A stretch of 34,606 nt of DNA from a virus: positions 1-34,606 of the IMG/VR virus record IMGVR_UViG_3300021185_004502. The stretch is one strand, 5' to 3'. The position numbers and the translations under genes are program-made. How positions within the stretch are numbered: the first letter of the stretch is position 1; the number at the start of each line of letters is the position of its first letter. The notes below the pieces were generated by a model. The model saw nothing but the letters and a program-made list of their open reading frames with translations. It was not told where the DNA came from and searched no databases. Positions 248 through 34,556 of the stretch are shown in pieces.

Positions 248-553
248 ATGAGTAAAAAAAATGCAATCGTTTCTGTTAAAGTTATCAAAGGAGATATTAA
301 CAGAGCATTAAAAAAATTAAAAAGAAGAACAATTGATTCAGGACATCTTTTAGAACTGAGAGAAAGACGATACTACACAAAACCCACAACAGTTCGTAGA
401 AAACAAAAACAACAAGCTATTAGAGAACAACAGAAGGAAACCATACTTGGTAAGATAGATGATGGTGATACTTCAATAAGGTTTTACACTAAAAAGAAGA
501 AAAAACCAAAGAATCAAAAAAAAGAAGATAAAAATAAAAATACAAGAAAATAA
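248..553 (+). CDS. rpsU: Phage-encoded ribosomal protein bS21 with Lys-rich C-terminal extension
   Basis: This 101-residue protein matches the bS21 family. It has a short beta start (VSVKVIKGD, residues 9-16), a basic helix (INRALKKLKRR, 17-27) and the family signature RERRYYTKPTT (38-48), followed by RRKQKQQAI. Bacterial bS21 is usually about 70 residues; here about 30 extra residues follow, ending in a Lys/Asn-rich tail from residue 73. bS21 sits on the small-subunit platform near the 3' end of 16S rRNA and helps initiation. Phage copies are known from marine viruses and are thought to replace or compete with the host protein. The gene has its own promoter-like motif (208-220) and lies next to the head genes, so late expression is likely. 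The start is the only in-frame ATG near the AAGGAG, although the spacing is odd. Identity is confident; function during infection is inferred. Confidence 0.85.
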   Translation: MSKKNAIVSVKVIKGDINRALKKLKRRTIDSGHLLELRERRYYTKPTTVRRKQKQQAIREQQKETILGKIDDGDTSIRFYTKKKKKPKNQKKEDKNKNTRK

Positions 554-6872: not shown

Positions 6873-7234
6873 GTAAAAGTAAACCAAATATAATAACTCC
6901 TTTTAACGATAGAGATAGATTTAAGGCTTTAGTACAAGAAGTGATAAATGATACAACAATATTTACTCATGTACCAGATTCTATTAATTTAAGTGGAAAT
7001 TTGTTTACACTTACATTATCTAATAAGAAATTCGTATTTCAAGATATTGAAGTTGATAAATTATCAGAATATGTGGATGTATATTTACAAGGAATAAAAA
7101 AACCAGCTGACACTTATACGGTTACTGATAATGGAACAAATATAGTAATTAATTTTACTGAAAATATAACACTAGACCCACCAAGTATAGTGAATACAGA
7201 TTTTTCAGTAAAAGGAAAGATAGTGAGTAGATAA
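6869..7234 (+). CDS. Small structural protein, second stand-alone copy of the gp15 C-terminal module
   Basis: A 121-residue protein. The N-terminus (PFNDRDRFKALVQEVINDTT) is a short helix typical of small phage virion proteins. Residues 58-121 repeat the shared module: SEYVDVYLQGIKKPADTY, then VTDNGTNIVINF, ending DFSVKGKIVSR, which aligns with EFGVTGKFIEK of gp15. It overlaps the previous gene by four bases and the giant adhesin by one (TAATG). Its position immediately before the adhesin makes it a candidate adaptor between tail end and fibre, but this is inference. No known domain name can be assigned by eye. Confidence 0.75.
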   Translation: MSKSKPNIITPFNDRDRFKALVQEVINDTTIFTHVPDSINLSGNLFTLTLSNKKFVFQDIEVDKLSEYVDVYLQGIKKPADTYTVTDNGTNIVINFTENITLDPPSIVNTDFSVKGKIVSR

Positions 7235-10200
7235 TGGCAACATTAATTCAAAGTAAACAGATACAAGGTGTAGTTACTGCTTCGGTAATTACAGGAGATT
7301 TCGCTGTAAATGCAGGTTCGGTTAATCTTTCAGCTGCAAGTGGTGTAAGTGGTTCTTTTAGTGGTTCTTTTATTGGTAATGGTAGTGGATTAACTAACAT
7401 ACCTTACTCAAACATTACAGGTACTCCTATTTTTAAAGGTGGTTCAAATGTTACTATTGCATCTTCTTCAAACCAAATTACAATTAGTTCAACTGGTGGT
7501 AGTGGAGCTTCATCATGGAACGAATTAAGTGGTATTCCAACCGGCTTAATTAGTGGTTCTACTTTTACATCATTTAGTTCATCGGTAGATTCAAGAATTG
7601 TAGGTATTTCTGCAAGTGGTAGTGGTGCTGATTGGAACACAAACTTACAAAATATTCCAAATGGATTAGTAAGTGGTTCTGTATTAAGAACTTTGGATGG
7701 AACTGGTGTTGTAAGTGGTTCTGTTATTAGAACATTTGATGGTAGTGGTGTAGTTAGTGGAAGTGTTCTTAGAACTTTGGATGGTAGTGGTGTTATAAGT
7801 GGTTCAATACTAACTTATTTACCAAGTGGAACTGTTAGTGGTTCATCTCAAATAACTTTTAGTGGATTAAGTGGTAAACCAAGTGGTTTGGTTTCTTCAT
7901 CTGTACAAATAACTGATGGAAGCGGAATTTTAAGTGGTTCAATTATTAACCAACTTCCTAAAGGTATTATTAGTGGTTCAACATTCACTTCATTCTCATC
8001 TTCAGTAGATACAAGATTAGATACTTTAGAAAACGCAACTGATAATACAGGTTCGGATACTCAATCACTTTCTATTAGTGGAGACCAACTTACAATATCA
8101 GATGGAAATACTGTAACCATACCAACAGGTAGTGGAGGTTCAGTACCAGCAGGAACAATTTCTTCATCGGCACAATTAACTACTGAGTTTGATACACGAT
8201 ATATTAATGCAAGTGGTGATGGTGTAGTTAGTGGTTCTGTTATTAGAACATTTGATGGTACTGGTGTTGTAAGTGGTTCTGTATTAAGAACTTTGGATGG
8301 AACGGGAGTAGTTAGTGGTTCTGTCATTAGAACATTTGATGGAACAGGAATCTTAAGTGGTTCATTGGTATCACAACTTCCTAGTGGATTGGTTAGTGGT
8401 TCATATAGTTCTTCAGTAGATTCAAGAATACTCACAGAGAAATCAAGAATAGATAATATACTAAGTGGTGCTAATGCAGATTATGACCAATTCGTAGAAA
8501 TTGTAGATTTAGTTAACTCAACTGATACAACAAACGATACTGCATTTGCAAATCACTATACTTCAAGTAGACAAAGAGATGCTGCATTAGAATCATTTAC
8601 ATCATCTATCGATACAACAATAAAATCAAAACTTAATACAGATAATGTTTTAAGTGGTTCTATTACAACTTTATTACCAGGTGGTGTAATTAGTGGTTCA
8701 TCACAAATTACTGATGGTAGTGGAATTATAAGTGGTTCGGTATTAAGAACACTTGATGGAACAGGTGTATTTAGTGGCTCATTGGTAGCAGGAACAAGTA
8801 TTACAATAAATCAAGTTGGAAATAATTTTGAAATATCTTCTTCGGCTAGTGGTGGTGGAGCAAGTGTAACTGTTTCAGATTCGGCACCAAGCTCGCCTTC
8901 AGAAGGTGATTTATGGTGGAAATCCAATGATGGTAATCTTTATGTTTACTATGATGGATATTGGGTAATTTCAAACGATATAACGGCAGGTTTACCTGCG
9001 GGAGTAATTAGTGGTTCAGCACAAATAACTTCAATAATTACAGATGCATATATTTCAGCATCAGCCGCTTCAAGTGGATTTGGTAGTGGTGGTGGAACGA
9101 GTAATTTTACTGAACTAACAAATGTACCAAGTGGATTAGTTAGTGGTTCAACCCAAATTACTGATGGTAGTAATATTGTAAGTGGTTCTGTATTAAGAAC
9201 TTTAGATGGAACTGGTGTAGTTAGTGGAAGTGTACTTAGAACTTTAGATGGTAGTGGAGTAATTAGTGGTTCTGTATTAAGAACTTTAGATGGAACAGGA
9301 GTAATTAGTGGAAGTGTTCTTAGAACTTTAGATGGAACAGGAGTAATTAGTGGAAGTGTTCTTAGAACTTTAGATGGAACAACTGTTTTAAGTGGTTCAA
9401 TATTACCAGGTACAAATATTACAATAAATTCTGGTAGTGGAAACTATATTATTAGTTCAAGTGGAGGTTCAACTGATTTCGATGGAAATAGAGTAATATC
9501 ACAAGATAAATTACCAGCATTCTTTACATCATCATTTAATCCTGGTACAAGTGGTTCAGTAACGGATTTCTTAAATGCAATATTTTATCCAAATAGTGCA
9601 CCAAGTATAACAACTGGTAATCAAACAATTTCAGAATACACTACAAATGGTTCAACGATTGTAACAGTAACAGGAACAGACCCTGAAGGACAATCATTAA
9701 CATTCGGAACATCATCGGCATATAGTGATGATTTAGTAAGAGTTGCATCAAATGGTGTAATGACATTAAATTCTTTACCAACTTCTGCATCTTTCAATAC
9801 TGATTCGGTTAGTGGTGCACATGGACATAAGGTTGAAGTAACTGCAACAGATACTTTTAATACAACTGTTACAAAGGATATTTATATAATTGTAACTCCA
9901 AACGAAGCTCCTAAATTTAGAGAAAATTCGGTAAGTGGAAATGTTATTACTTCGGTAACTGCAAACTTAAATGAAAGTTCTGCAAATGATACTTTAGTAA
10001 AAAGAGTTTTCTTTACTGATGTAGAAAGTGATTCAATCACTATCACTTCTTCATCGATTGATGGTAATCATTTCGATGTAACAAAATATTCAACTTATGT
10101 TGATATTAGACAAAATACAAGTTCATTAGATTATGAACAAAGAACAACTTATAACTTTAGTATAACTGCTTCGGATGAACATTATGTAAATGGACAAGAT

Positions 10201-13200
10201 TCTGATTCAAGAACTATCTTACCAATTACAGTAAATGTAACTGATAACTTAGTACCAGTTGTAAATTCACAAGTTGTAGGTTCAATAAACGAAAATTCAT
10301 CAAATGGAGCATCAGTTGGCTCTATATCGGCAACTGATAGTGAAGGAGATAGTATATCTTTCGTAACATTTGATTTACATAAATTATTATTAGATGGTTC
10401 AGAAGTAACAAGTGGTTCATATGGTGGTACTTCACAATTAACAGACCCACATGAAAATCCTTTCCAAATGGATTCGAGTGGTAATGTAACAAGAAAAACT
10501 GGTGTTGTAATAAATTCTGATTTAATAAACTCTTATCAATATAGAGTACAAGTAAGAGATAATTATAATGCACAAATTTCATCTGCATCTGTTGCAACTA
10601 TCAATATTATAGATGATACACCAGCAACACTTTCAGATAACTGGTCAGCAGGGCCTTATATCAAAGAATCTGAAGAAAATGGTACAACTATAAAAACAAC
10701 AAACTATGGTTCAACTACTGCAGATTATAATTCAAATCAAAGTGGTACTTGGGCATCATCTAATTCAGAAATTTCAATAAATTCAAGTGGTAATTTATCA
10801 TTAGGATTTCATGTAAGTGGTTCGGCTAAACAAAGTGGACAATCATTAGATTCAACAATTACATTTACAAATACTTTCGGTACAACAACTACTGATAGTT
10901 TAAGTGTAGTAATTTTACCTAATCATTTCCCAAGTGCTTCATTTACAAATCAAACATCTAATCTAAATGCAAATTTAGCAGTAACTAATTCTAATTTAGT
11001 TTTAGTTACAATAACAGATACAGAGGGTGATACTCCTTACTCAGCTTCACTATCCGGTACTGATGCATCCAAACTTAATATCAATTATACAAATGGAACA
11101 TCATCCTCTCTTTATATACGAGCAAATGAAGATTTATCTGCTGGTACTTTAAACTATAATCTAAGAGTTACTGATTCTTATAGTGAATCATCAGATTATA
11201 CAGGTAGAACACTTACCATCGCAGCTGCTGATAATGGTACACTTGGAGGAGATACAACTTCTTATATCATAGAATCAGGAAAAAGTGGAGAAGCAATTAG
11301 AGATGCAAGTGGATTTGGTGCAGGTAATCAATCACAAATGACAGTATCGTACTCACCAAACTATGGTTCACAAGCAGTACAAGGTTCATCTTGGACTTCA
11401 TCAAATTCAGCAATTGCAATTAATACAAATGGACAATTATCATTGGCATCTCATATTAGTGGTTCATCTACTGGTAGTGGAGATACTATTGTATCTACAA
11501 TTGGATTCCAAGACCAATATGGTAATGCTGGAAGTGGAAATGTAACAGTTAATGTATTTGCAAATAATCATCCATCTGCTTCATTTACACAAAATACAAG
11601 TATCTATAATGAAAACCAAATGGTTAGTGGAAGTTTAGTAGAAAGTTTCACAATTACTGATACAGAAGCAGATGTACCTTATAGTATTTCACTAAGTGGA
11701 ACTGATGCAAGTAAGATTGATGTTGTACCACAAAATTCAAACACATCTTCGGTACAATTAAAAACTAAACAAGATTTAGCAGGAGGTTCATATACATATA
11801 AAGTTAGTGTTTCAGATGGATATCAAGTATCTGAATATGATAGAACTGTAACTATTGCATCTGCTAATTTAGGTTCAATGAGTGAAAATGGTACTTTCTA
11901 TATTATTGAATCAGCACTTAATAATGATTTCATATTTACTAATTCAAATGGTAGAACAGGAACACAAGGAGAAGTAAGTGTTTCTTACTCACCAAACTAT
12001 GGTTCACAATCAGCTACAAACTTTGCTTCATCAAATGCATTAATTGCAATTGATTCATCAAATGGTAAATTGAAAGCTGGTGGAAATATTAGTGGTAGTG
12101 GAAATACAAATGGAGAAACAATTACATCTACAATATCTTGGAATGACCAATATGGAAATAATGGTAGTGATTCAATTACAGTCAACATTGCTCAAAACAA
12201 CGCACCAACTGTAAGTTCAACTTCAACTTCTAACTTGAATACAAACCAAGCAACTGGTTCGGCACAAATACTTAACTTAGTAGTTAGTGATACTGAAAGT
12301 GATTCAATTCCAAATAGTGGATTATCATTTAGTGGATTTAATTCAACTTATTTTACTCCATCAATCTCAACTCCAAGTATGAAATTGTTAGTGAATAATA
12401 CTTCAGTACCAGCTGGAACGTATCCTTATACTGCATCAATACAAGATGTTCATGGATTTAGTACAACGACTGTAAGTAACACATTTACAATAGCACAATC
12501 ATCTACTGGTTCTCTTGGTGGAGATACTGCAATTTATATTATAGAATCTGCAGAAAGTGGAGATGTATTTAGAGACCAAACAGGATTTAATCAAGGAAAT
12601 GCTGCTCAACTAAGTGTTTCATATTCTCCATCACATGGTTCACCTGTTGTACAATCATATACATCATCAATGTCATCTATTGCAGTAGATAATAGTGGTA
12701 ATTTAACTCTTAATGTAAATTTAAGTGGTTCTGCTACTCAAAGTACAGATACATTCCAAAGTACAATCACATTTAGAGACCAATATGATAATATAGGAAG
12801 TGGAGTAGTAACTGCAACAGTATTTGGTAACTCATCACCAGTAGCATCATTTACATCTTCATCAAATTATGAAAGTGATAATGCAACAAGTGGTTCTGAT
12901 GCAGGTGCGTTGGTAGTAACAGATACAGAATCTAATTCACCATTTACAATTACACTTGGTGGAACACATGGAAGTCAATTTGATGTTAGTGGAACATCAT
13001 CTCCATTTGAAATACAACCAAAAGCTTCATTGGCGGCTGGAACTTATACAATCAATATTACTGTAACTGATAATTATGATGAATCGGTAACATTAACTGG
13101 TGAAACAATCACAGTTGATGCATCAGCAAATAATGGTAAAATATATGTTTATGATGTAGGATTTGACAATGCAACATATAATACTGCTTTGGGTATTCAA

Positions 13201-13710
13201 TCAGAAGATAGTTCAACTCCACCGGTAGCAACACCATATAGTGGAATTGGATTTGTAGATAAAGTTATAAATGGAGATGTACTTGGAGATAGTTCATTTA
13301 CATATTCATATGGAAGTACAATTACTTCAAATAAATTAGCAGAAGGTACTGGTGATAATGTACACGATGTATTAAGAGCCATGGGTACTAGTGGTGTAAT
13401 AACTAGAAATTCATCGAAACACTTTGCAATTTTAATGCCAAGTGGTTCATCAATGACTGGGTTTCCAACAAGTACAGCAAATGGTTTTGGGGGTTCAACT
13501 GCAGGAGAATATGTATTAGAAGTAGGAACAGATGGAACAACAGTTGATGGTACAAGTACAGTTGAAACATCAGAAATTAATCAAATAACATTAGGAACAT
13601 CACATCTTGGATTTACTAAATGGTTTATAGTAGGTGCAACTGGTCAACTTGCAAGTTCAACAAACTTCAATCTAGGATTAAATCCATCAAGTGGAAGTGG
13701 AGGGGCATAA
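7234..13710 (+). CDS. Giant tail adhesin/fibre with SGS repeats and cadherin-like Ig repeats
   Basis: A 2158-residue Ser/Thr/Gly-rich fibre. Residues 1-60 contain the fibre entry pattern GSFSGSFIGNGSGLTNIPYS. Residues about 60-760 are SGSxQI/SGSVLRTLDGTGVV repeats. They enclose a short globular module at about 550-580 (PSSPSEGDLWW, then LYVYYDGYWV), common in phage fibres. From about 788 come cadherin/Ig-like domains with Asp-rich calcium-site motifs (TDPEGQ, TDVESD, TDSEGD). From about 1130 two domain types alternate four times with a period near 213 residues: one with YIIES and SYSPNYGS, the other with ITDTEGD and LSGTDASK. The last about 190 residues (from GKIYVYDVGFDN) are unique and may bind the receptor; the end is SGSGGA. 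No signal peptide or S74 chaperone is seen. It is coupled to the upstream small genes, which suggests attachment near the tail. Which fibre it corresponds to in T4 is not clear. Confidence 0.85.
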   Translation: MATLIQSKQIQGVVTASVITGDFAVNAGSVNLSAASGVSGSFSGSFIGNGSGLTNIPYSNITGTPIFKGGSNVTIASSSNQITISSTGGSGASSWNELSGIPTGLISGSTFTSFSSSVDSRIVGISASGSGADWNTNLQNIPNGLVSGSVLRTLDGTGVVSGSVIRTFDGSGVVSGSVLRTLDGSGVISGSILTYLPSGTVSGSSQITFSGLSGKPSGLVSSSVQITDGSGILSGSIINQLPKGIISGSTFTSFSSSVDTRLDTLENATDNTGSDTQSLSISGDQLTISDGNTVTIPTGSGGSVPAGTISSSAQLTTEFDTRYINASGDGVVSGSVIRTFDGTGVVSGSVLRTLDGTGVVSGSVIRTFDGTGILSGSLVSQLPSGLVSGSYSSSVDSRILTEKSRIDNILSGANADYDQFVEIVDLVNSTDTTNDTAFANHYTSSRQRDAALESFTSSIDTTIKSKLNTDNVLSGSITTLLPGGVISGSSQITDGSGIISGSVLRTLDGTGVFSGSLVAGTSITINQVGNNFEISSSASGGGASVTVSDSAPSSPSEGDLWWKSNDGNLYVYYDGYWVISNDITAGLPAGVISGSAQITSIITDAYISASAASSGFGSGGGTSNFTELTNVPSGLVSGSTQITDGSNIVSGSVLRTLDGTGVVSGSVLRTLDGSGVISGSVLRTLDGTGVISGSVLRTLDGTGVISGSVLRTLDGTTVLSGSILPGTNITINSGSGNYIISSSGGSTDFDGNRVISQDKLPAFFTSSFNPGTSGSVTDFLNAIFYPNSAPSITTGNQTISEYTTNGSTIVTVTGTDPEGQSLTFGTSSAYSDDLVRVASNGVMTLNSLPTSASFNTDSVSGAHGHKVEVTATDTFNTTVTKDIYIIVTPNEAPKFRENSVSGNVITSVTANLNESSANDTLVKRVFFTDVESDSITITSSSIDGNHFDVTKYSTYVDIRQNTSSLDYEQRTTYNFSITASDEHYVNGQDSDSRTILPITVNVTDNLVPVVNSQVVGSINENSSNGASVGSISATDSEGDSISFVTFDLHKLLLDGSEVTSGSYGGTSQLTDPHENPFQMDSSGNVTRKTGVVINSDLINSYQYRVQVRDNYNAQISSASVATINIIDDTPATLSDNWSAGPYIKESEENGTTIKTTNYGSTTADYNSNQSGTWASSNSEISINSSGNLSLGFHVSGSAKQSGQSLDSTITFTNTFGTTTTDSLSVVILPNHFPSASFTNQTSNLNANLAVTNSNLVLVTITDTEGDTPYSASLSGTDASKLNINYTNGTSSSLYIRANEDLSAGTLNYNLRVTDSYSESSDYTGRTLTIAAADNGTLGGDTTSYIIESGKSGEAIRDASGFGAGNQSQMTVSYSPNYGSQAVQGSSWTSSNSAIAINTNGQLSLASHISGSSTGSGDTIVSTIGFQDQYGNAGSGNVTVNVFANNHPSASFTQNTSIYNENQMVSGSLVESFTITDTEADVPYSISLSGTDASKIDVVPQNSNTSSVQLKTKQDLAGGSYTYKVSVSDGYQVSEYDRTVTIASANLGSMSENGTFYIIESALNNDFIFTNSNGRTGTQGEVSVSYSPNYGSQSATNFASSNALIAIDSSNGKLKAGGNISGSGNTNGETITSTISWNDQYGNNGSDSITVNIAQNNAPTVSSTSTSNLNTNQATGSAQILNLVVSDTESDSIPNSGLSFSGFNSTYFTPSISTPSMKLLVNNTSVPAGTYPYTASIQDVHGFSTTTVSNTFTIAQSSTGSLGGDTAIYIIESAESGDVFRDQTGFNQGNAAQLSVSYSPSHGSPVVQSYTSSMSSIAVDNSGNLTLNVNLSGSATQSTDTFQSTITFRDQYDNIGSGVVTATVFGNSSPVASFTSSSNYESDNATSGSDAGALVVTDTESNSPFTITLGGTHGSQFDVSGTSSPFEIQPKASLAAGTYTINITVTDNYDESVTLTGETITVDASANNGKIYVYDVGFDNATYNTALGIQSEDSSTPPVATPYSGIGFVDKVINGDVLGDSSFTYSYGSTITSNKLAEGTGDNVHDVLRAMGTSGVITRNSSKHFAILMPSGSSMTGFPTSTANGFGGSTAGEYVLEVGTDGTTVDGTSTVETSEINQITLGTSHLGFTKWFIVGATGQLASSTNFNLGLNPSSGSGGA
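7672..7797 (+). repeat. Three tandem 42-bp repeats (SGSVLRTLDGTGVV)
   Basis: Units at 7672-7713, 7714-7755 and 7756-7797 each encode one 14-residue unit inside the giant adhesin. The copies differ by a few bases, with a RTLDG/RTFDG alternation. Confidence 0.9.
8230..8355 (+). repeat. Second block of three tandem 42-bp repeats
   Basis: Units at 8230, 8272 and 8314 encode the same 14-residue repeat as at 7672, now in the order RTFDG, RTLDG, RTFDG. Confidence 0.9.
9181..9390 (+). repeat. Block of five tandem 42-bp repeats
   Basis: Units start at 9181, 9223, 9265, 9307 and 9349. They are closer to each other than those of the earlier blocks, all of the RTLDG type, suggesting recent expansion. 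The block lies just before the Ig-like region of the adhesin. Confidence 0.9.
10621..13135 (+). repeat. Four copies of an ~213-residue two-domain repeat
   Basis: First-type domains start near 10621, 11234, 11873 and 12512 (GSLGGDT/YIIES, SYSPNYGS, SSNSxIAI, DQYGN). Each is followed by a second-type domain near 10930, 11570, 12200 and 12840 (ASFT, ITDTE, LSGTDAS, DLAGGTY). Spacing is about 613-640 bases. The copies are diverged at DNA level, so this is an older duplication than the 42-bp repeats. Confidence 0.75.
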
Positions 13711-29436: not shown

Positions 29437-30432
29437 ATGTATGATGTATATTATACAACCGGTGGTGGTCCTTGGGTAAATGCTGGAACTGATACTTGGG
29501 TAAATCTATGGATGGAGTTAGTTGTACCTAAATTAAATGTAAAACCAATTCTTCTTTTACATAGAAATAAACCAACAGGACATGAAGATTATGAATTTCC
29601 TATCGAAGCTTATTGGCATGGAGATGATATAGAAAAGTTTGAGGAACTATGTAAAGGAGCAAGAAGAATAAATATATTACATGGTCATTATACCCCAATG
29701 AAAGTAATAGAAGAAAACTTAGATAAAATACATTCAAATGTTTTACATAATTCAGTAGACCATATTATTAAATCCCAAGTTGGTACTGATGCTTATTTTG
29801 GATGGCATCCATTTATAAATTCACAATGGGAACAAAAAGTTAATAAGAGTTCAAAATATAATATATGGGTTGGTGTTTATGATATTTTAACAAAAAATGT
29901 AAATATACCAAACTTTTATGAATTTAAAAATAATTTAGATTTAAGTGATTCTAATAATATAGGATTTGCTTCAAGGTGTGAGGGAAGAAAGAATCCACAT
30001 TACTTAGATGGATTAAAATCTTTTATATTTACAAATTCATTTCATTTTAAAACAATATGGAAGGGGTTTGGTAAATATGATTACTCAAAATCAAAAATAT
30101 ATCATTACAATTCTAAATTTAAAGATACTTTTTACAATATGGATTGGGGAATATCTCATTCTTCTTTTACGAGTGAACCATTTGGATATTCTATATTCGA
30201 GGCAATAGATAGAGGTAAGTTACCTATTTTACATGGAAGTTGGTGTAAGGATTTAAATTATCCTTATAGAGCTTCATCTAAAAAAGAATTTAATGATATT
30301 TATAAGAGGTTAATCGAAACCCCATACTCTGAAAAAAATAAATGGTTTAAATCATTAAAACAATTTATGATTAATAATTATACTAATAAAGAAGAGTGGA
30401 TAAACAAATTACTCGATATTTATAATATATAG
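29437..30432 (+). CDS. GT-B-type glycosyltransferase-like protein within the fibre cluster
   Basis: A 331-residue protein unlike its neighbours: low in Ser/Thr repeats and rich in Trp, Tyr, His and Lys. It carries the retaining GT-B donor-site pattern E-x7-E in SEPFGYSIFEAIDRGKLPIL (Glu247 and Glu255), where nucleotide-sugar glycosyltransferases of the GT4 type have this motif. IGFASRCEGRKNPHYLDGL (about residue 181) fits the start of the C-terminal Rossmann half. The N-terminus has YYTTGGGPWVNAGTD, a Gly-rich turn expected near the acceptor site. It would transfer a sugar from a nucleotide donor in the host cytoplasm. The acceptor is unknown; the fibre neighbours are obvious candidates. There is no real ribosome site, and the start is four bases after the fibre stop, so low, coupled translation is likely. 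The superfamily is fairly certain; the reaction is not. Confidence 0.7.
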   Translation: MYDVYYTTGGGPWVNAGTDTWVNLWMELVVPKLNVKPILLLHRNKPTGHEDYEFPIEAYWHGDDIEKFEELCKGARRINILHGHYTPMKVIEENLDKIHSNVLHNSVDHIIKSQVGTDAYFGWHPFINSQWEQKVNKSSKYNIWVGVYDILTKNVNIPNFYEFKNNLDLSDSNNIGFASRCEGRKNPHYLDGLKSFIFTNSFHFKTIWKGFGKYDYSKSKIYHYNSKFKDTFYNMDWGISHSSFTSEPFGYSIFEAIDRGKLPILHGSWCKDLNYPYRASSKKEFNDIYKRLIETPYSEKNKWFKSLKQFMINNYTNKEEWINKLLDIYNI

Positions 30433-30444
30433 GGAAAAGTATAT

Positions 30445-31755
30445 ATGGCAATTTCAGCAGGAGAAACACTCAGTTTAAATAATTTGGCGGGAGCTACAGG
30501 TGATGTACAAAATTCAAATGTATCATTAGGTAGTATAAAAGGTTCACCATCAGCTGGTGATAATATTACATTATCTTCATTTGGTATAGATGCAGTAAGT
30601 GCATCTTTAGGAGGATATCAATACGCCGTAGAAGGTACTAATGAAACTTATGAACTAGGATTTGTTGAAAGAGGAGCTAATTTCGATTCTTATATCGGAA
30701 ATAGATATCAAAACTTCACTTGGGGAGTTACACCAGCATTTGATTCAGATGGTGATGATGAAGGATTTTTATCAGTAGGTGCTAATCAAGATGCAACTGC
30801 AGTTATAACAGTTGGTACTATGAATCCACAATATAGTTCAGGACAAACATCATTAATGAGTAATCATTCACATACATTATCAGCAACATTTGCAGATGGA
30901 TTCAATCACCACGCTACACGATATAATACAGCTGTAGATAAAACTGTTTATTCAGTAGATACATATGATGGTAACTCTACTGCACTTTGTATTTTAGTTG
31001 ATACACCAGTTACTTTAATTGATGGTTCAAAGATAGAAGCAGGAGATGTTAGTGAAGGATTAAAACTTCAAGGATATTCATTTAATGATTTAAGTGAAGA
31101 TGAGGGTAACTTTTTTAATTGGTCAAGTGAAGAAAAGGGAGAAGTTGAAGAAGAAGTTGAAGTTACAAATGTTATATTCTCATTTGCAGAAAAATACTAC
31201 AATATAAATGATGGTGATATAAAGGCAACATCGGAACACCCAATGTTAGTTAAAGATAATTATGATGGGTTGTTCAAATTTAAACAAATAAAAGATATTA
31301 CTGAAAACGATAAATTAGTAAAAAGAATCGATGGAGAATTAGTTGAAACTAATATATCATCAATTGAAGTTATCGAAGATACTGTTGAGATTGTTACTAT
31401 TGATGTAGAATCTCATGATACCTATTTAATAAATGACTATGTAACACACAATAAAGGAGGAAACTCACATAGTGATTTATCAGCCCCATCAGCCCCAGCT
31501 AATTTAGCTTATACTGAAGTTAATGGTCAAAACCATAATATTACATGGGATGCTGTAAGTGGTATAACAGGATATAGATTACAAGTTGATAATAATTCAG
31601 ATTTCTCATCACCTATAATTGATGAAGATGAATATACTTCAACTACATTAAATGTTGTAACTGCTTTAGGAAGTGGAACATTCTATGCCAGAGTAAGGTC
31701 AATTGACCATGGATTGAATGGAAACTACTCAGGTACCTTGACTATTAGTAGATAA
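30445..31755 (+). CDS. Virion protein with intein-like Hint domain and fibronectin-III-like C-terminus
   Basis: A 436-residue protein in three parts. Residues 1-181 look structural (MAISAGETLSLNNLAGATGD; Gly/Ser-rich, SNHSHTLSATF). Residues 182-336 form a Hint (hedgehog/intein) domain: Cys182 in ALCILVDTPVTLIDGSKIEA, the block-B TSEHPML with Thr262 and His265, and the end HDTYLINDYVTHN with His335-Asn336. At 155 residues it is mini-intein sized, with no homing endonuclease. The residue after Asn336 is Lys, not Cys/Ser/Thr, so normal splicing is not expected. Cleavage at either end, as proposed for bacterial intein-like domains, is possible. Residues about 345-436 (SAPSAPANLAYTEV, ITWDAVSGITGYRLQVD, ARVRS) are one fibronectin-III-like domain. 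AGGG precedes the ATG. It is probably a tail or fibre-tip protein; the function of cleavage is inference. Confidence 0.8.
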   Translation: MAISAGETLSLNNLAGATGDVQNSNVSLGSIKGSPSAGDNITLSSFGIDAVSASLGGYQYAVEGTNETYELGFVERGANFDSYIGNRYQNFTWGVTPAFDSDGDDEGFLSVGANQDATAVITVGTMNPQYSSGQTSLMSNHSHTLSATFADGFNHHATRYNTAVDKTVYSVDTYDGNSTALCILVDTPVTLIDGSKIEAGDVSEGLKLQGYSFNDLSEDEGNFFNWSSEEKGEVEEEVEVTNVIFSFAEKYYNINDGDIKATSEHPMLVKDNYDGLFKFKQIKDITENDKLVKRIDGELVETNISSIEVIEDTVEIVTIDVESHDTYLINDYVTHNKGGNSHSDLSAPSAPANLAYTEVNGQNHNITWDAVSGITGYRLQVDNNSDFSSPIIDEDEYTSTTLNVVTALGSGTFYARVRSIDHGLNGNYSGTLTISR

Positions 31756-31823: not shown

Positions 31824-32108
31824 ATGGCAAAAGAAATTAAGTTTACAGAAGAAGAAGTTGGAAAAATCAATTCATTAAGACAAGATGTTTCTAATCTATT
31901 TGTTCAATTAGGACAATTACAAGTTGAAAAACGAAGAAGAGTAGAAGAAATTGAAAATTTAGAAAATGAATTGTTAAATAAACATTCAGCTTTAGTACAA
32001 AATGAGAAAGATATGTTCTCAGAATTGAATGGAAAGTATGGAGATGGTAACTATGACCCATCATCAAACACATTCGTACCGGTTTCTGAAAATAAAGAAA
32101 CTAAGTAA
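31824..32108 (+). CDS. Small coiled-coil protein preceding the tail sheath
   Basis: A 94-residue protein. Residues about 5-70 are an almost continuous amphipathic, charged helix (FTEEEVGKINSLRQDVSNLF and VEKRRRVEEIENLENELLNK) with Leu/Val/Ile at heptad-like spacing. The end is a short turn-rich tail, NGKYGDGNYDPSSNTFVPVS, a pattern I recall from small conserved proteins of marine T4-like phages. A dimeric or trimeric coiled coil is likely. It has its own promoter motif upstream, and another separates it from the sheath gene. It may be a minor virion component or assembly factor. No function is known to me. The start lacks a Shine-Dalgarno sequence but is the only ATG that includes the whole helix. 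Confidence 0.7.
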   Translation: MAKEIKFTEEEVGKINSLRQDVSNLFVQLGQLQVEKRRRVEEIENLENELLNKHSALVQNEKDMFSELNGKYGDGNYDPSSNTFVPVSENKETK

Positions 32109-32186: not shown

Positions 32187-34556
32187 ATGGCAGAAAAAAT
32201 TGTATCACCTGGTGTATTTACGAGAGAAAATGACCTTTCTTTCTTATCACAAGGGATTGGTGAAATTGGAGCAGCAATAATTGGACCTTTCCATAAAGGA
32301 CCTGCTTTCGTACCAACCGTTGTTAATACACAATCAGAATTCGAAGAAATATTTGGTGTACCTAATGGAGATTACTATACAGGATATACCGTACAAAACT
32401 ACCTAAGAGAAGCAGGAACAGTAACTATTGTTCGTGTTGGTCATCAAGGTGGTTATTCACAAGTTAAACCTTTAGGAATTGAAGTAAGTGGTTCTACCGC
32501 ACAAGGTGGAAGAAGATTAATCGGTGTTTTAAACGCAACACATCAAGGTTCTCAAACTGTTGGATTTGCAACAGCTTCCAATATCATTGATTCACAACCA
32601 TCAGCATCAGCTTTCCTTATTAGTGGTTCAGACATAGGAACATCAGTATCCTCATCTGTACTACCAAGTGCAGGAAACGATATATCTGATGTATTTGGAG
32701 AATCTGCTAGAGGTTCTAAAAAAGCATATGCTCACAAGTACTTTGAAAAAGCGGCTGTTGACCATACATCGTATTTATCACAAAGTGGTTCTCAAGTAAA
32801 ATCAATAGAATTGGCAACACAAGATTTCACACAAGATATTCAACATGCCTCAACTCCATGGATACAATCACAGTTGATTTCTGGTGAAAGACATAATTTA
32901 ATTAAGTTCCATACTTTAGGTGATGGTACTAATTACAACAAAGAATACAAAATAGGTTTCTTTAATGTAAAAGCAGCTGGTTCTACTAACTCTACTGATT
33001 ATTCAACATTCTCAGTTGTAGTAAGAGGATACTCTGATACACATAAAAGACCAATTATTCTTGAAACATGGAATAATGTAAACCTAGACCCTGCATCACC
33101 AAACTATATTAAGAAAAGAATTGGTGATATGAACGTTTCTATCGATTCAGTTGGTAAAATGAACATGAGTGGTGATTATCAAAATAACTCTAAATTTATT
33201 AGAGTAGAATGTTCTGATGAAGGTTCATTCCCAATAGTTGCTGCACCATTTGGACATGCAGCATACGTTAATCCAATTTATGTTGGTTCTAATGGAACAG
33301 AAGCTATGATACCATCAGTTATATTTTCAACTGGTTCGGGAGATAACAATGGTTCTAAGAATATACAATATAGTGGTATTGATTTAGAAACTGCAGTAGT
33401 AAAAATTGATAACAACAGTTACTTATCTCCAATACCTGCTTCGGCAACTAGTGGTGGTAATACTGCTTTCTCATTCGATGCAGCATTTACTGCAATCGTA
33501 GATGGTGTTGTTGCAACTAAAAACTTTGCATATACATTATCAACATCAGATACTGCAACAACTATTAATAAAAGACAATTTATCGTAGGATTCCAAAATG
33601 GATTCGATGGTAGTAACCCAACAATCAAAGAAGCTAAATATGGTGATTCTGATTGGGGTGCTGGAAACTCACAAGGATTTAACTTATCTACTTCAACTGC
33701 AAGTGGTTCAGTTTCTTATGTGAAGGCAATCAATTCAGTATCTAATCCAGATGATTTCGATATCAACTTAGTATCTACACCTGGTGTTGTAAGAAGATTA
33801 CACTCTTATGTATTTGATAAAGTAGTTGATATGGTAGAAGCTAGAGAAGATGCATTCTTTATCGGTGATATTACTGATGGAGGAGATACTATATCAGATG
33901 CTACATCACAAGCAAGTAGTATAGATTCTAACTATGTAGGTTCTTACTACCCATGGGTTAAGACAATAGATTCAAGAACTAATAAACTAACAACTATACC
34001 ACCATCAGTATTGATGCCAGGTATATATGCGGCCAACGATGCGGTTGCTGCTGAGTGGTTTGCACCAGCTGGTTTAAATAGAGGTGGTATCGTAGGTGCG
34101 GTATCTGTATTAAACAGATTAACACATTCAGAGAGAGATACACTATATGAAGGAAAAGTTAATCCAATTGCTCAGTTCCCAGGAGAAGGTATCGTAGCAT
34201 TCGGACAAAAAACTTTACAAGATAAGGCATCTGCACTTGATAGAATCAACGTAAGAAGATTAATGATTAAAGTTAAGAAGTATATTGCTTCAACTTCAAG
34301 ATACTTAGTATTCGAACAAAACACTTCTCAAACGAGAGGTAGATTCTTAAATACTGTGAATCCTTATTTAGAAGGAATACAACAAAGACAAGGATTGTAT
34401 GCATTTAGAGTGGTGATGGATGAGAGTAATAACACACCAGATGTAATTGACAGAAATATATTGGCTGGACAGATTTTCTTACAACCAACAAAAACTGCTG
34501 AATTCATCGTGTTAGACTTCAACATCTTACCGACAGGGGCATCATTCTCGGCATAA
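32187..34556 (+). CDS. gp18: Contractile tail sheath protein, gp18-like
   Basis: A 789-residue protein; T4 gp18 is about 660. The N-terminus SPGVFTRENDLSFLSQG, followed by IGAAIIGPFHKGPAFVPTVV, is the sheath signature. 'FEEIFGV' and 'YYTGYTVQNYLREAGTVTIVR' follow. The C-terminal domain, which forms the inner contacts in contraction, contains LDRINVRRLMIKVKKYIAST, then FEQNTSQTRGRF and NPYLEGIQQRQGLYAFRVVM, ending TAEFIVLDFNILPTG. The central part (about residues 100-560) is a variable, surface-exposed region with Ser/Gly-rich stretches, enlarged compared with T4. The start has a strong AAGGAG. The gene has its own promoter-like motif, as expected for a highly expressed protein. The next gene beyond the window is probably the tail tube. 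Confidence 0.95.
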   Translation: MAEKIVSPGVFTRENDLSFLSQGIGEIGAAIIGPFHKGPAFVPTVVNTQSEFEEIFGVPNGDYYTGYTVQNYLREAGTVTIVRVGHQGGYSQVKPLGIEVSGSTAQGGRRLIGVLNATHQGSQTVGFATASNIIDSQPSASAFLISGSDIGTSVSSSVLPSAGNDISDVFGESARGSKKAYAHKYFEKAAVDHTSYLSQSGSQVKSIELATQDFTQDIQHASTPWIQSQLISGERHNLIKFHTLGDGTNYNKEYKIGFFNVKAAGSTNSTDYSTFSVVVRGYSDTHKRPIILETWNNVNLDPASPNYIKKRIGDMNVSIDSVGKMNMSGDYQNNSKFIRVECSDEGSFPIVAAPFGHAAYVNPIYVGSNGTEAMIPSVIFSTGSGDNNGSKNIQYSGIDLETAVVKIDNNSYLSPIPASATSGGNTAFSFDAAFTAIVDGVVATKNFAYTLSTSDTATTINKRQFIVGFQNGFDGSNPTIKEAKYGDSDWGAGNSQGFNLSTSTASGSVSYVKAINSVSNPDDFDINLVSTPGVVRRLHSYVFDKVVDMVEAREDAFFIGDITDGGDTISDATSQASSIDSNYVGSYYPWVKTIDSRTNKLTTIPPSVLMPGIYAANDAVAAEWFAPAGLNRGGIVGAVSVLNRLTHSERDTLYEGKVNPIAQFPGEGIVAFGQKTLQDKASALDRINVRRLMIKVKKYIASTSRYLVFEQNTSQTRGRFLNTVNPYLEGIQQRQGLYAFRVVMDESNNTPDVIDRNILAGQIFLQPTKTAEFIVLDFNILPTGASFSA

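What the first reader, a model, noticed from the sequence alone, without database searches (positions are those of the whole stretch)
30988..31455. Hint domain without splicing nucleophile in a tail protein
The 155-residue domain keeps Cys182, Thr262/His265 and His335-Asn336 but is followed by Lys-Gly-Gly instead of Cys/Ser/Thr. It should cleave rather than splice. Cleavage after Asn336 would free a fibronectin-like domain; thioester attack at Cys182 could cut, or covalently attach, the N-terminal 181 residues. A self-processing step during tail or tip maturation would be a distinctive mechanism.
Basis: partly seen in the sequence, partly recalled or inferred. Interest (0 to 1): 0.7.

Follow-up and report, generated by a model that had tools for sequence, protein, structure and literature searches.

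The report
Self-processing Hint domain in phage tails
A large family of uncultured phages carries, inside a tail protein, an intact self-cutting protein domain (a Hint domain, related to inteins) that ends in a lysine instead of the usual splicing residue and is always encoded beside a glycosyltransferase-like gene, which suggests an unreported self-processing, and possibly self-ligating, step in building virus tails.

Summary
Residues 182-336 of the 436-aa protein (window 30445-31755) form a Hint domain with Cys182, Thr262/His265 and His335-Asn336, followed by Lys337-Gly-Gly. The predicted fold matches bacterial intein-like (BIL) domains, best the Tetrahymena BUBL BIL2 domain. In 169 unique phage Hint domains (37 groups below 60% identity) the catalytic residues are nearly invariant while their codons vary synonymously.

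Two things change the interpretation. First, the +1 lysine is fixed in the tail proteins like the window's even where the C-terminal part is swapped (fn3, laminin-G lectin, another domain, or only 4-27 residues). Freeing the fn3 domain is thus not the shared function, and lysine probably has a chemical role. BIL2 is reported to join its N-flank to a lysine side chain, and BIL domains can ligate without a nucleophilic +1 residue, so 'cleaves, not splices' does not follow. Second, the Hint gene is always next to a glycosyltransferase-like gene: 80/80 close and 79/79 distant loci found by searching for that gene alone.

Best reading: an active, BIL-type Hint domain that removes itself during tail maturation, probably with lysine as acyl acceptor. 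Activity is inferred, not shown.

The parts
30445..31755 (+). tail-region structural protein, 436 aa: N-terminal domain + Hint + fn3-like domain
   Evidence: AlphaFold2 model pLDDT 86.6; relatives L001-L016 and L023-L102
30445..30987 (+). N-terminal part (residues 1-181), helical N-terminus then a beta-rich domain; the 'N-extein' side
   Evidence: 350 of 351 ORFs carrying this domain in the fetched loci also carry the Hint domain; the exception is a broken frame; no match in isolate phages
30988..31452 (+). Hint domain, residues 182-336 (155 aa)
30988..30990 (+). Cys182, predicted nucleophile of the N-S acyl shift
   Evidence: C in 166/169 unique Hint domains, 34/37 groups
31228..31239 (+). 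block B Thr262-x-x-His265
   Evidence: T/S 167/169, H 165/169; H codons CAC 87 / CAT 78
31447..31452 (+). block G His335-Asn336, predicted Asn cyclisation and C-terminal cleavage site
   Evidence: H 167/169, N 166/169; N codons AAT 98 / AAC 68
31453..31458 (+). +1 Lys337 and +2 Gly338, where inteins have Cys/Ser/Thr at +1
   Evidence: K in 79/79 full-length relatives; KG kept across four kinds of C-terminal flank; canonical +1 in 113/121 Hint C-termini of a family-blind scan
31453..31755 (+). C-terminal part, fn3-like domain (residues 337-436)
   Evidence: replaced by laminin-G (PF13385, 5e-14) in L314 and L439
29437..30432 (+). glycosyltransferase-like gene, 331 aa, ends 12 bp before the Hint gene; E-x7-E motif EPFGYSIFE (residues 247-255)
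   Evidence: Hint gene adjacent in 80/80 and 79/79 loci fetched by this gene alone; no Pfam, NCBIfam, PHROG or PDB match, so the name rests on the motif
31824..32108 (+). small predicted coiled-coil protein between the Hint gene and the sheath gene (context)
   Evidence: similar small gene before the sheath in phages lacking the Hint gene
32187..34556 (+). tail sheath protein (context)
   Evidence: Pfam PF17482/PF04984, phrog_23 5e-69

Best explanation
The domain is a catalytically intact BIL-type Hint domain built permanently into a tail protein, not a mobile intein. Proposed mechanism: Cys182, helped by Thr262/His265, turns the Leu181-Cys182 bond into a thioester. Asn336, helped by His335, cyclises and cuts before Lys337. 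The acyl group of residues 1-181 is passed to an amine of the lysine that follows the Hint domain (side-chain or freed alpha-amine of Lys337). The Hint domain leaves, and the N-terminal domain stays joined to the C-terminal binding domain (about 281 aa). Shown here: the fold, the conserved residues, the fixed +1 lysine across swapped C-termini, and the linked glycosyltransferase-like gene. Inferred: that the reactions occur, that lysine is the acceptor, and that this happens during tail maturation. Weights: some autoprocessing 0.85; lysine-dependent ligation in cis 0.42; cleavage only 0.30; transfer to another protein 0.13.
For: Hint fold with BIL domains among the best matches. Catalytic residues nearly invariant in 169 unique sequences with synonymous codon turnover, i.e. 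purifying selection on the amino acids. Lys+1 in 79/79 close relatives and in every downstream-type relative with a readable C-terminus found next to the GT-like gene, although the C-terminal flank is fn3, laminin-G, a third domain or 4-27 residues. In 18 groups with C-terminal tails of 10 residues or fewer and an intact His-Asn, all 18 tails contain Lys; 6.8 expected from matched C-termini of 480 control ORFs. Inteins of the same virus collection have C/S/T at +1 in 113/121. Precedent: BIL2 splices to give an isopeptide bond K(epsilon-NH2)-C-terminus (PMC8616854); A-type BILs can splice without a +1 nucleophile (PMC5874633; Aranko 2013 cited in PMC7664689). If cleavage were complete the adhesin would be lost from its anchor.
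Against: No biochemical or proteomic data. BIL domains without a +1 nucleophile are said to give predominantly cleaved products (PMC7664689). The block F His of many inteins is Asp here (31/37 groups), which may slow Asn cyclisation. The paralogous Hint genes upstream of the GT-like gene have V, T or G at +1 (K only later in the tail), so Lys at +1 is not universal. Relatives with short tails have little to ligate. Shared ancestry inflates the lysine counts: about 10 independent lineages at most, rough p about 5e-5.
Confidence: 0.42

Rival explanations
1. Cleavage only: the Hint domain cuts at Cys182 by thioester hydrolysis and/or after Asn336, without joining the pieces; maturation removes the Hint domain or the C-terminal part.
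For: No Cys/Ser/Thr at +1; BIL domains are described as giving mainly cleaved products (PMC7664689; PMC7765530). Short-tailed relatives need no ligation.
Against: Does not explain why Lys-Gly is fixed at +1/+2 while everything after it is exchanged or why every short tail keeps a Lys; would discard the binding domain.
Confidence: 0.3
2. Transfer in trans: the thioester at Cys182 attaches the N-terminal domain to lysines (or another acceptor) on a different virion protein, in the way reported for BIL2; the GT-like protein might prepare or modify the acceptor.
For: BIL2 is described as a platform that conjugates its N-flanking domain to other proteins (PMC8616854). Some relatives end in Gly-rich linkers before Cys (GGGG|C) like a donor tail. 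Strict linkage to a GT-like gene.
Against: No acceptor identified; BIL2 similarity is one of fold; NCTB and Alexandravirus Hint proteins lack a detectable GT-like gene.
Confidence: 0.13
3. A structural Hint fold that no longer reacts, kept as a spacer or binding domain.
For: Block F His is replaced by Asp in most groups; the domain is never lost in the lineage, as expected for a structural part.
Against: Cys, Thr, His, His, Asn are kept with synonymous codon turnover in 37 divergent groups; the few with a lost Cys or His-Asn are isolated or degenerate.
Confidence: 0.12
4. An ordinary mobile intein that splices by the class 1 route.
For: Fold and catalytic residues.
Against: No Cys/Ser/Thr at +1; no endonuclease (155 aa); no Hint-less allele of the host protein found; variable, non-essential host protein.
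Confidence: 0.03

Closest known systems
Tetrahymena thermophila BUBL1 BIL2 domain (PDB 6y75, 6tmm)
   Same: Best fold match (E 3e-9 and 5e-9, TM-score by target 0.82 and 0.78) and best sequence-profile match (3e-5); Cys1, block B His and C-terminal His-Asn; reported to join its N-flank to a lysine side chain (PMC8616854)
   Different: About 20% identity; ciliate polyubiquitin locus; block F His of BIL2 is Asp here; whether the BIL2 C-flank begins with Lys was not checked
A-type bacterial intein-like (BIL) domains, e.g. Clostridium thermocellum 2lwy
   Same: Hint fold (TM-score 0.83), intein catalytic residues, His-Asn end, usually no nucleophile at +1, fixed in variable proteins
   Different: +1 is a fixed Lys-Gly in this tail family rather than variable; virion proteins; adjacent GT-like gene
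Hint domains in NCTB and Alexandravirus collagen-like tail proteins (phrog_38766)
   Same: 26-29% identity ending exactly at Asn336; C-terminal Hint after a tail-fibre region; short Lys-containing tail
   Different: No C-terminal binding domain, +1 Ala or Thr, no detectable GT-like neighbour
Phage terminase/polymerase inteins
   Same: Hint fold; Cys1; His-Asn
   Different: C/S/T at +1 (113/121 in the scan), conserved host enzymes, often an endonuclease
S74 endosialidase-type intramolecular chaperone
   Same: Autocatalytic release of a domain during phage tail-fibre maturation (PMC7824862)
   Different: Unrelated fold and chemistry (Ser/Lys); an S74 domain lies in an upstream gene of this window

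Membership tests
Hint superfamily | Hint fold | tested here: met
   AlphaFold2 pLDDT 88; the 50 best PDB matches are all Hint structures
Hint superfamily | intein-type sequence motifs | tested here: met
   TIGR01445 34/34 members, best 1.8e-8; Intein_splicing 33/34, best 5.9e-5, window member below Pfam cut-off
A-type BIL domain | Cys/Ser at position 1, block B Thr-x-x-His, C-terminal His-Asn | tested here: met
   residue table, 169 unique sequences
A-type BIL domain | no obligatory Cys/Ser/Thr at +1 | tested here: met
   Lys in 79/79 close relatives; T only in 2 of 37 groups
A-type BIL domain | no homing endonuclease; in variable, non-conserved protein | tested here: met
   155 aa; tail protein absent from related Mel-JY01 and immuto sheath loci
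A-type BIL domain | closer to A-type BILs than to other Hint types in sequence | tested here: inconclusive
   BIL2 and 2lwy are among the best profile matches, but archaeal and gyrase inteins follow closely; no tree made
A-type BIL domain | autocatalytic cleavage or splicing | not testable with these tools
   needs expression or virion proteomics
Class 1 intein | Cys/Ser/Thr at +1 | tested here: not met
   Lys337, conserved
Class 1 intein | interrupts a protein that also exists without it | tested here: not met
   no intact Hint-less homologue found
Hedgehog Hog domain | sterol-recognition region after Hint; no Asn needed | tested here: not met
   Asn336 conserved; fn3-like, lectin or short tail after Hint
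BUBL BIL2-like lysine ligation | isopeptide bond to lysine | not testable with these tools
   only indirect: fixed Lys+1 and Lys in all short tails
GT-B (GT4-like) glycosyltransferase, for the neighbour | E-x7-E motif in a GT-B fold | tested here: inconclusive
   motif seen directly in A5; no Pfam, NCBIfam, PHROG or PDB profile match; no structure predicted

The most novel reading that the evidence does not exclude
The phages use a two-gene cassette, a Hint-bearing tail protein plus a dedicated glycosyltransferase-like enzyme. The Hint domain uses lysine as its acceptor, so that it excises itself leaving an isopeptide-linked (branched) anchor-adhesin tail protein, or conjugates the anchor to another virion component, with the enzyme modifying one of the partners.
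Probability: 0.2. Interest if true: 0.85.

Novelty: new variant of a known kind. Interest (0 to 1): 0.62.

Why it matters
Self-processing Hint domains are known in inteins, Hedgehog and bacterial surface proteins. A fixed, Lys-ended Hint domain in phage tail proteins, conserved over hundreds of genomes, exchangeable between adhesin domains and inseparable from a glycosyltransferase-like gene, would be a new way to mature or cross-link a tail, and a natural source of lysine-accepting ligation domains. The literature searches made here found no report of it, though automated annotation already labels some related phage proteins 'Hint domain'.

Tried and rejected
(1) Mobile intein: rejected, no Hint-less allele and no endonuclease. 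(2) Tail tube: considered because phrog_4971 (major tail protein, 283 aa, fn3 at 193-277) matches the length of a spliced product; dropped because a separate gp19-like tube gene follows the sheath and fn3 alone explains the match. (3) Pfam malate synthase and DUF4992 matches: below cut-off, judged spurious. (4) Conserved synteny alone as explanation of the GT-Hint pair: rejected, because in distant loci no sheath gene is found next to the pair and in two phages the order is reversed. (5) Searching the N-terminal domain in isolate phages: no match. (6) genome-contig scan: no relative. (7) Single-protein scans with G001's second Hint and with the LR756508 GT: nothing new. (8) GT profile against PDB, Pfam and NCBIfam: no match. 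(9) Two apparent +1 Gly cases (L397, L410) were an internal His-Asn picked by the script; the true +1 is Lys.

Full report
Observation. Single-sequence Pfam evidence is weak (12.6 bits to Intein_splicing). As a family it is clear: TIGR01445 (intein N-terminal region) matches 34/34 members, and the profile finds the Tetrahymena BIL2 structures at 3e-5 and the Clostridium thermocellum BIL at 0.005. AlphaFold2 gave a confident domain (pLDDT 88), and Foldseek against the PDB lists only Hint structures in its top 50, BIL2 first.

Setting. Upstream lie an S74-ended fibre protein, a 564-aa protein and a 331-aa glycosyltransferase-like (GT-like) gene. Downstream lie a small predicted coiled-coil gene and the tail sheath. 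In relatives a gp19-like tube and baseplate-type genes follow. The nearest isolates by sheath are Microcystis phage Mel-JY01 and Flavobacterium phage immuto. They share the sheath, tube and small gene but not the Hint gene at that position, and no GT-like homologue was found in them. The window itself is a 34.6-kb virus record.

Conservation. Searches by full protein, by the Hint domain and by the N-terminal domain alone gave 79 distinct full-length proteins. All have C at position 1, His-Asn at the end and Lys at +1. The N-terminal domain occurred without the Hint domain once in 351 ORFs, in a broken frame. A wider set of 169 unique Hint domains falls into 37 groups below 60% identity: Cys in 34 groups, Thr/Ser in 35, block B His in 33, block G His in 36, Asn in 35. 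His and Asn codons are split almost evenly between synonyms, so the residues are held by selection, not by recent descent.

The +1 lysine. A scan for Hint C-termini that knew nothing of this family gave Cys/Ser/Thr at +1 in 113 of 121 frames. One of its two lysine hits, L314, is a distant relative in which the fn3 domain is replaced by a laminin-G lectin domain (PF13385, 5e-14), still His-Asn-Lys-Gly. Loci found by the GT-like gene show four kinds of C-terminal flank: fn3 of about 100 aa, lectin-type of about 220-257 aa, a domain of about 140 aa, and tails of 4-27 residues such as KGTNDAP, KGSN and KGSDSNPF. All with a readable end start with Lys-Gly. Among 18 groups with tails of 10 residues or fewer and an intact His-Asn, all 18 contain lysine, against 6.8 expected from 480 control C-termini. 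Shared ancestry means this is perhaps ten independent observations (about 5e-5), not eighteen.

The linked gene. Searching viral contigs with the GT-like protein alone gave 80 close loci, all with the Hint gene next to it, and 79 more, GTs 35-41% identical to the most distant seed, again all with a Hint gene nearby; a few contigs occur in both sets. The GTs form 16 single-linkage clusters at 70% identity and 5 at 50%. In the distant loci examined there is no sheath gene beside the pair, so this is not just tail-gene synteny. Some of these loci have a second Hint gene upstream of the GT, ending HN-VHDK, HN-VHAK or HN-TFHDK. In the 484-kb phage LR756508.1 and at a second locus of the 276-kb relative G001, a different tail-type protein with a C-terminal Hint domain precedes a GT homologue. 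The GT label rests on the E-x7-E motif; no profile library recognises the family. NCTB and Alexandravirus have similar Hint tail proteins but no detectable GT homologue.

Mechanism. The active site is complete for N-S acyl shift and Asn cyclisation. Reviews say that BIL domains lacking a +1 nucleophile mostly cleave but can also splice (PMC7664689, PMC5874633, PMC7765530). The structure providers of BIL2, the closest relative here, report a splicing route ending in an isopeptide bond to a lysine side chain and conjugation to other proteins (PMC8616854). With a fixed lysine in the acceptor position whatever follows, I favour lysine-dependent ligation (0.42), then cleavage only (0.30), transfer to another virion protein (0.13), an inert fold (0.12) and canonical splicing (0.03). 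None of the chemical steps is shown here. The original papers on BIL splicing and BIL2 were not in the library, so those statements rest on later papers that cite them.

Verdict. A real, conserved, previously undescribed arrangement (as far as the searched library shows) of a known kind of domain.

Noticed in passing
window 29437-30432; L332-L410, L411-L489: GT-like gene inseparable from Hint tail proteins in all loci fetched by it (80/80 and 79/79, some contigs in both sets); family unknown to Pfam, NCBIfam and PHROGs.
   Followed up: partly
L411:912-1970, L412:2874-4016, L413:1863-2924, L414:3949-4992, L417:1995-2972, L482:3826-4986: A second Hint gene upstream of the GT-like gene, C-terminal Hint after Gly-rich linkers, ending HN-VHAK/VHGK/VHDK/TFHDK/GKGE.
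   Followed up: partly
L198:6728-9022 (276-kb phage G001): Protein with three Hint-like domains in tandem at its C-terminus, the last ending HN-K and stop, the first lacking Cys1; two genes upstream of PhoH.
   Followed up: no
L205 (Phage NCTB, LT598654.1 96419-103678): Three Hint-bearing genes in one tail-fibre cluster, one a nearly free-standing Hint (BN7874_135, ends HN-KVD).
   Followed up: partly
L217:5264-8713: 1150-aa protein of Thr/Ser/Trp-rich repeats ending in a Hint domain, HN-KKDALC..., beside a second repeat-only protein.
   Followed up: no
window 248-553: Phage-encoded homologue of ribosomal protein bS21 (phrog_21469, 1e-9), just upstream of the capsid genes.
   Followed up: no
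window 7234-13710: 2158-aa protein with a weak cadherin-like match, very large for its place before the fibre genes.
   Followed up: no
L206:3065-4759, L207:3482-4780 (Ruminococcus phages): Pretoxin-type Hint domain followed by an unrelated C-terminal domain in phage genomes of the gut.
   Followed up: no
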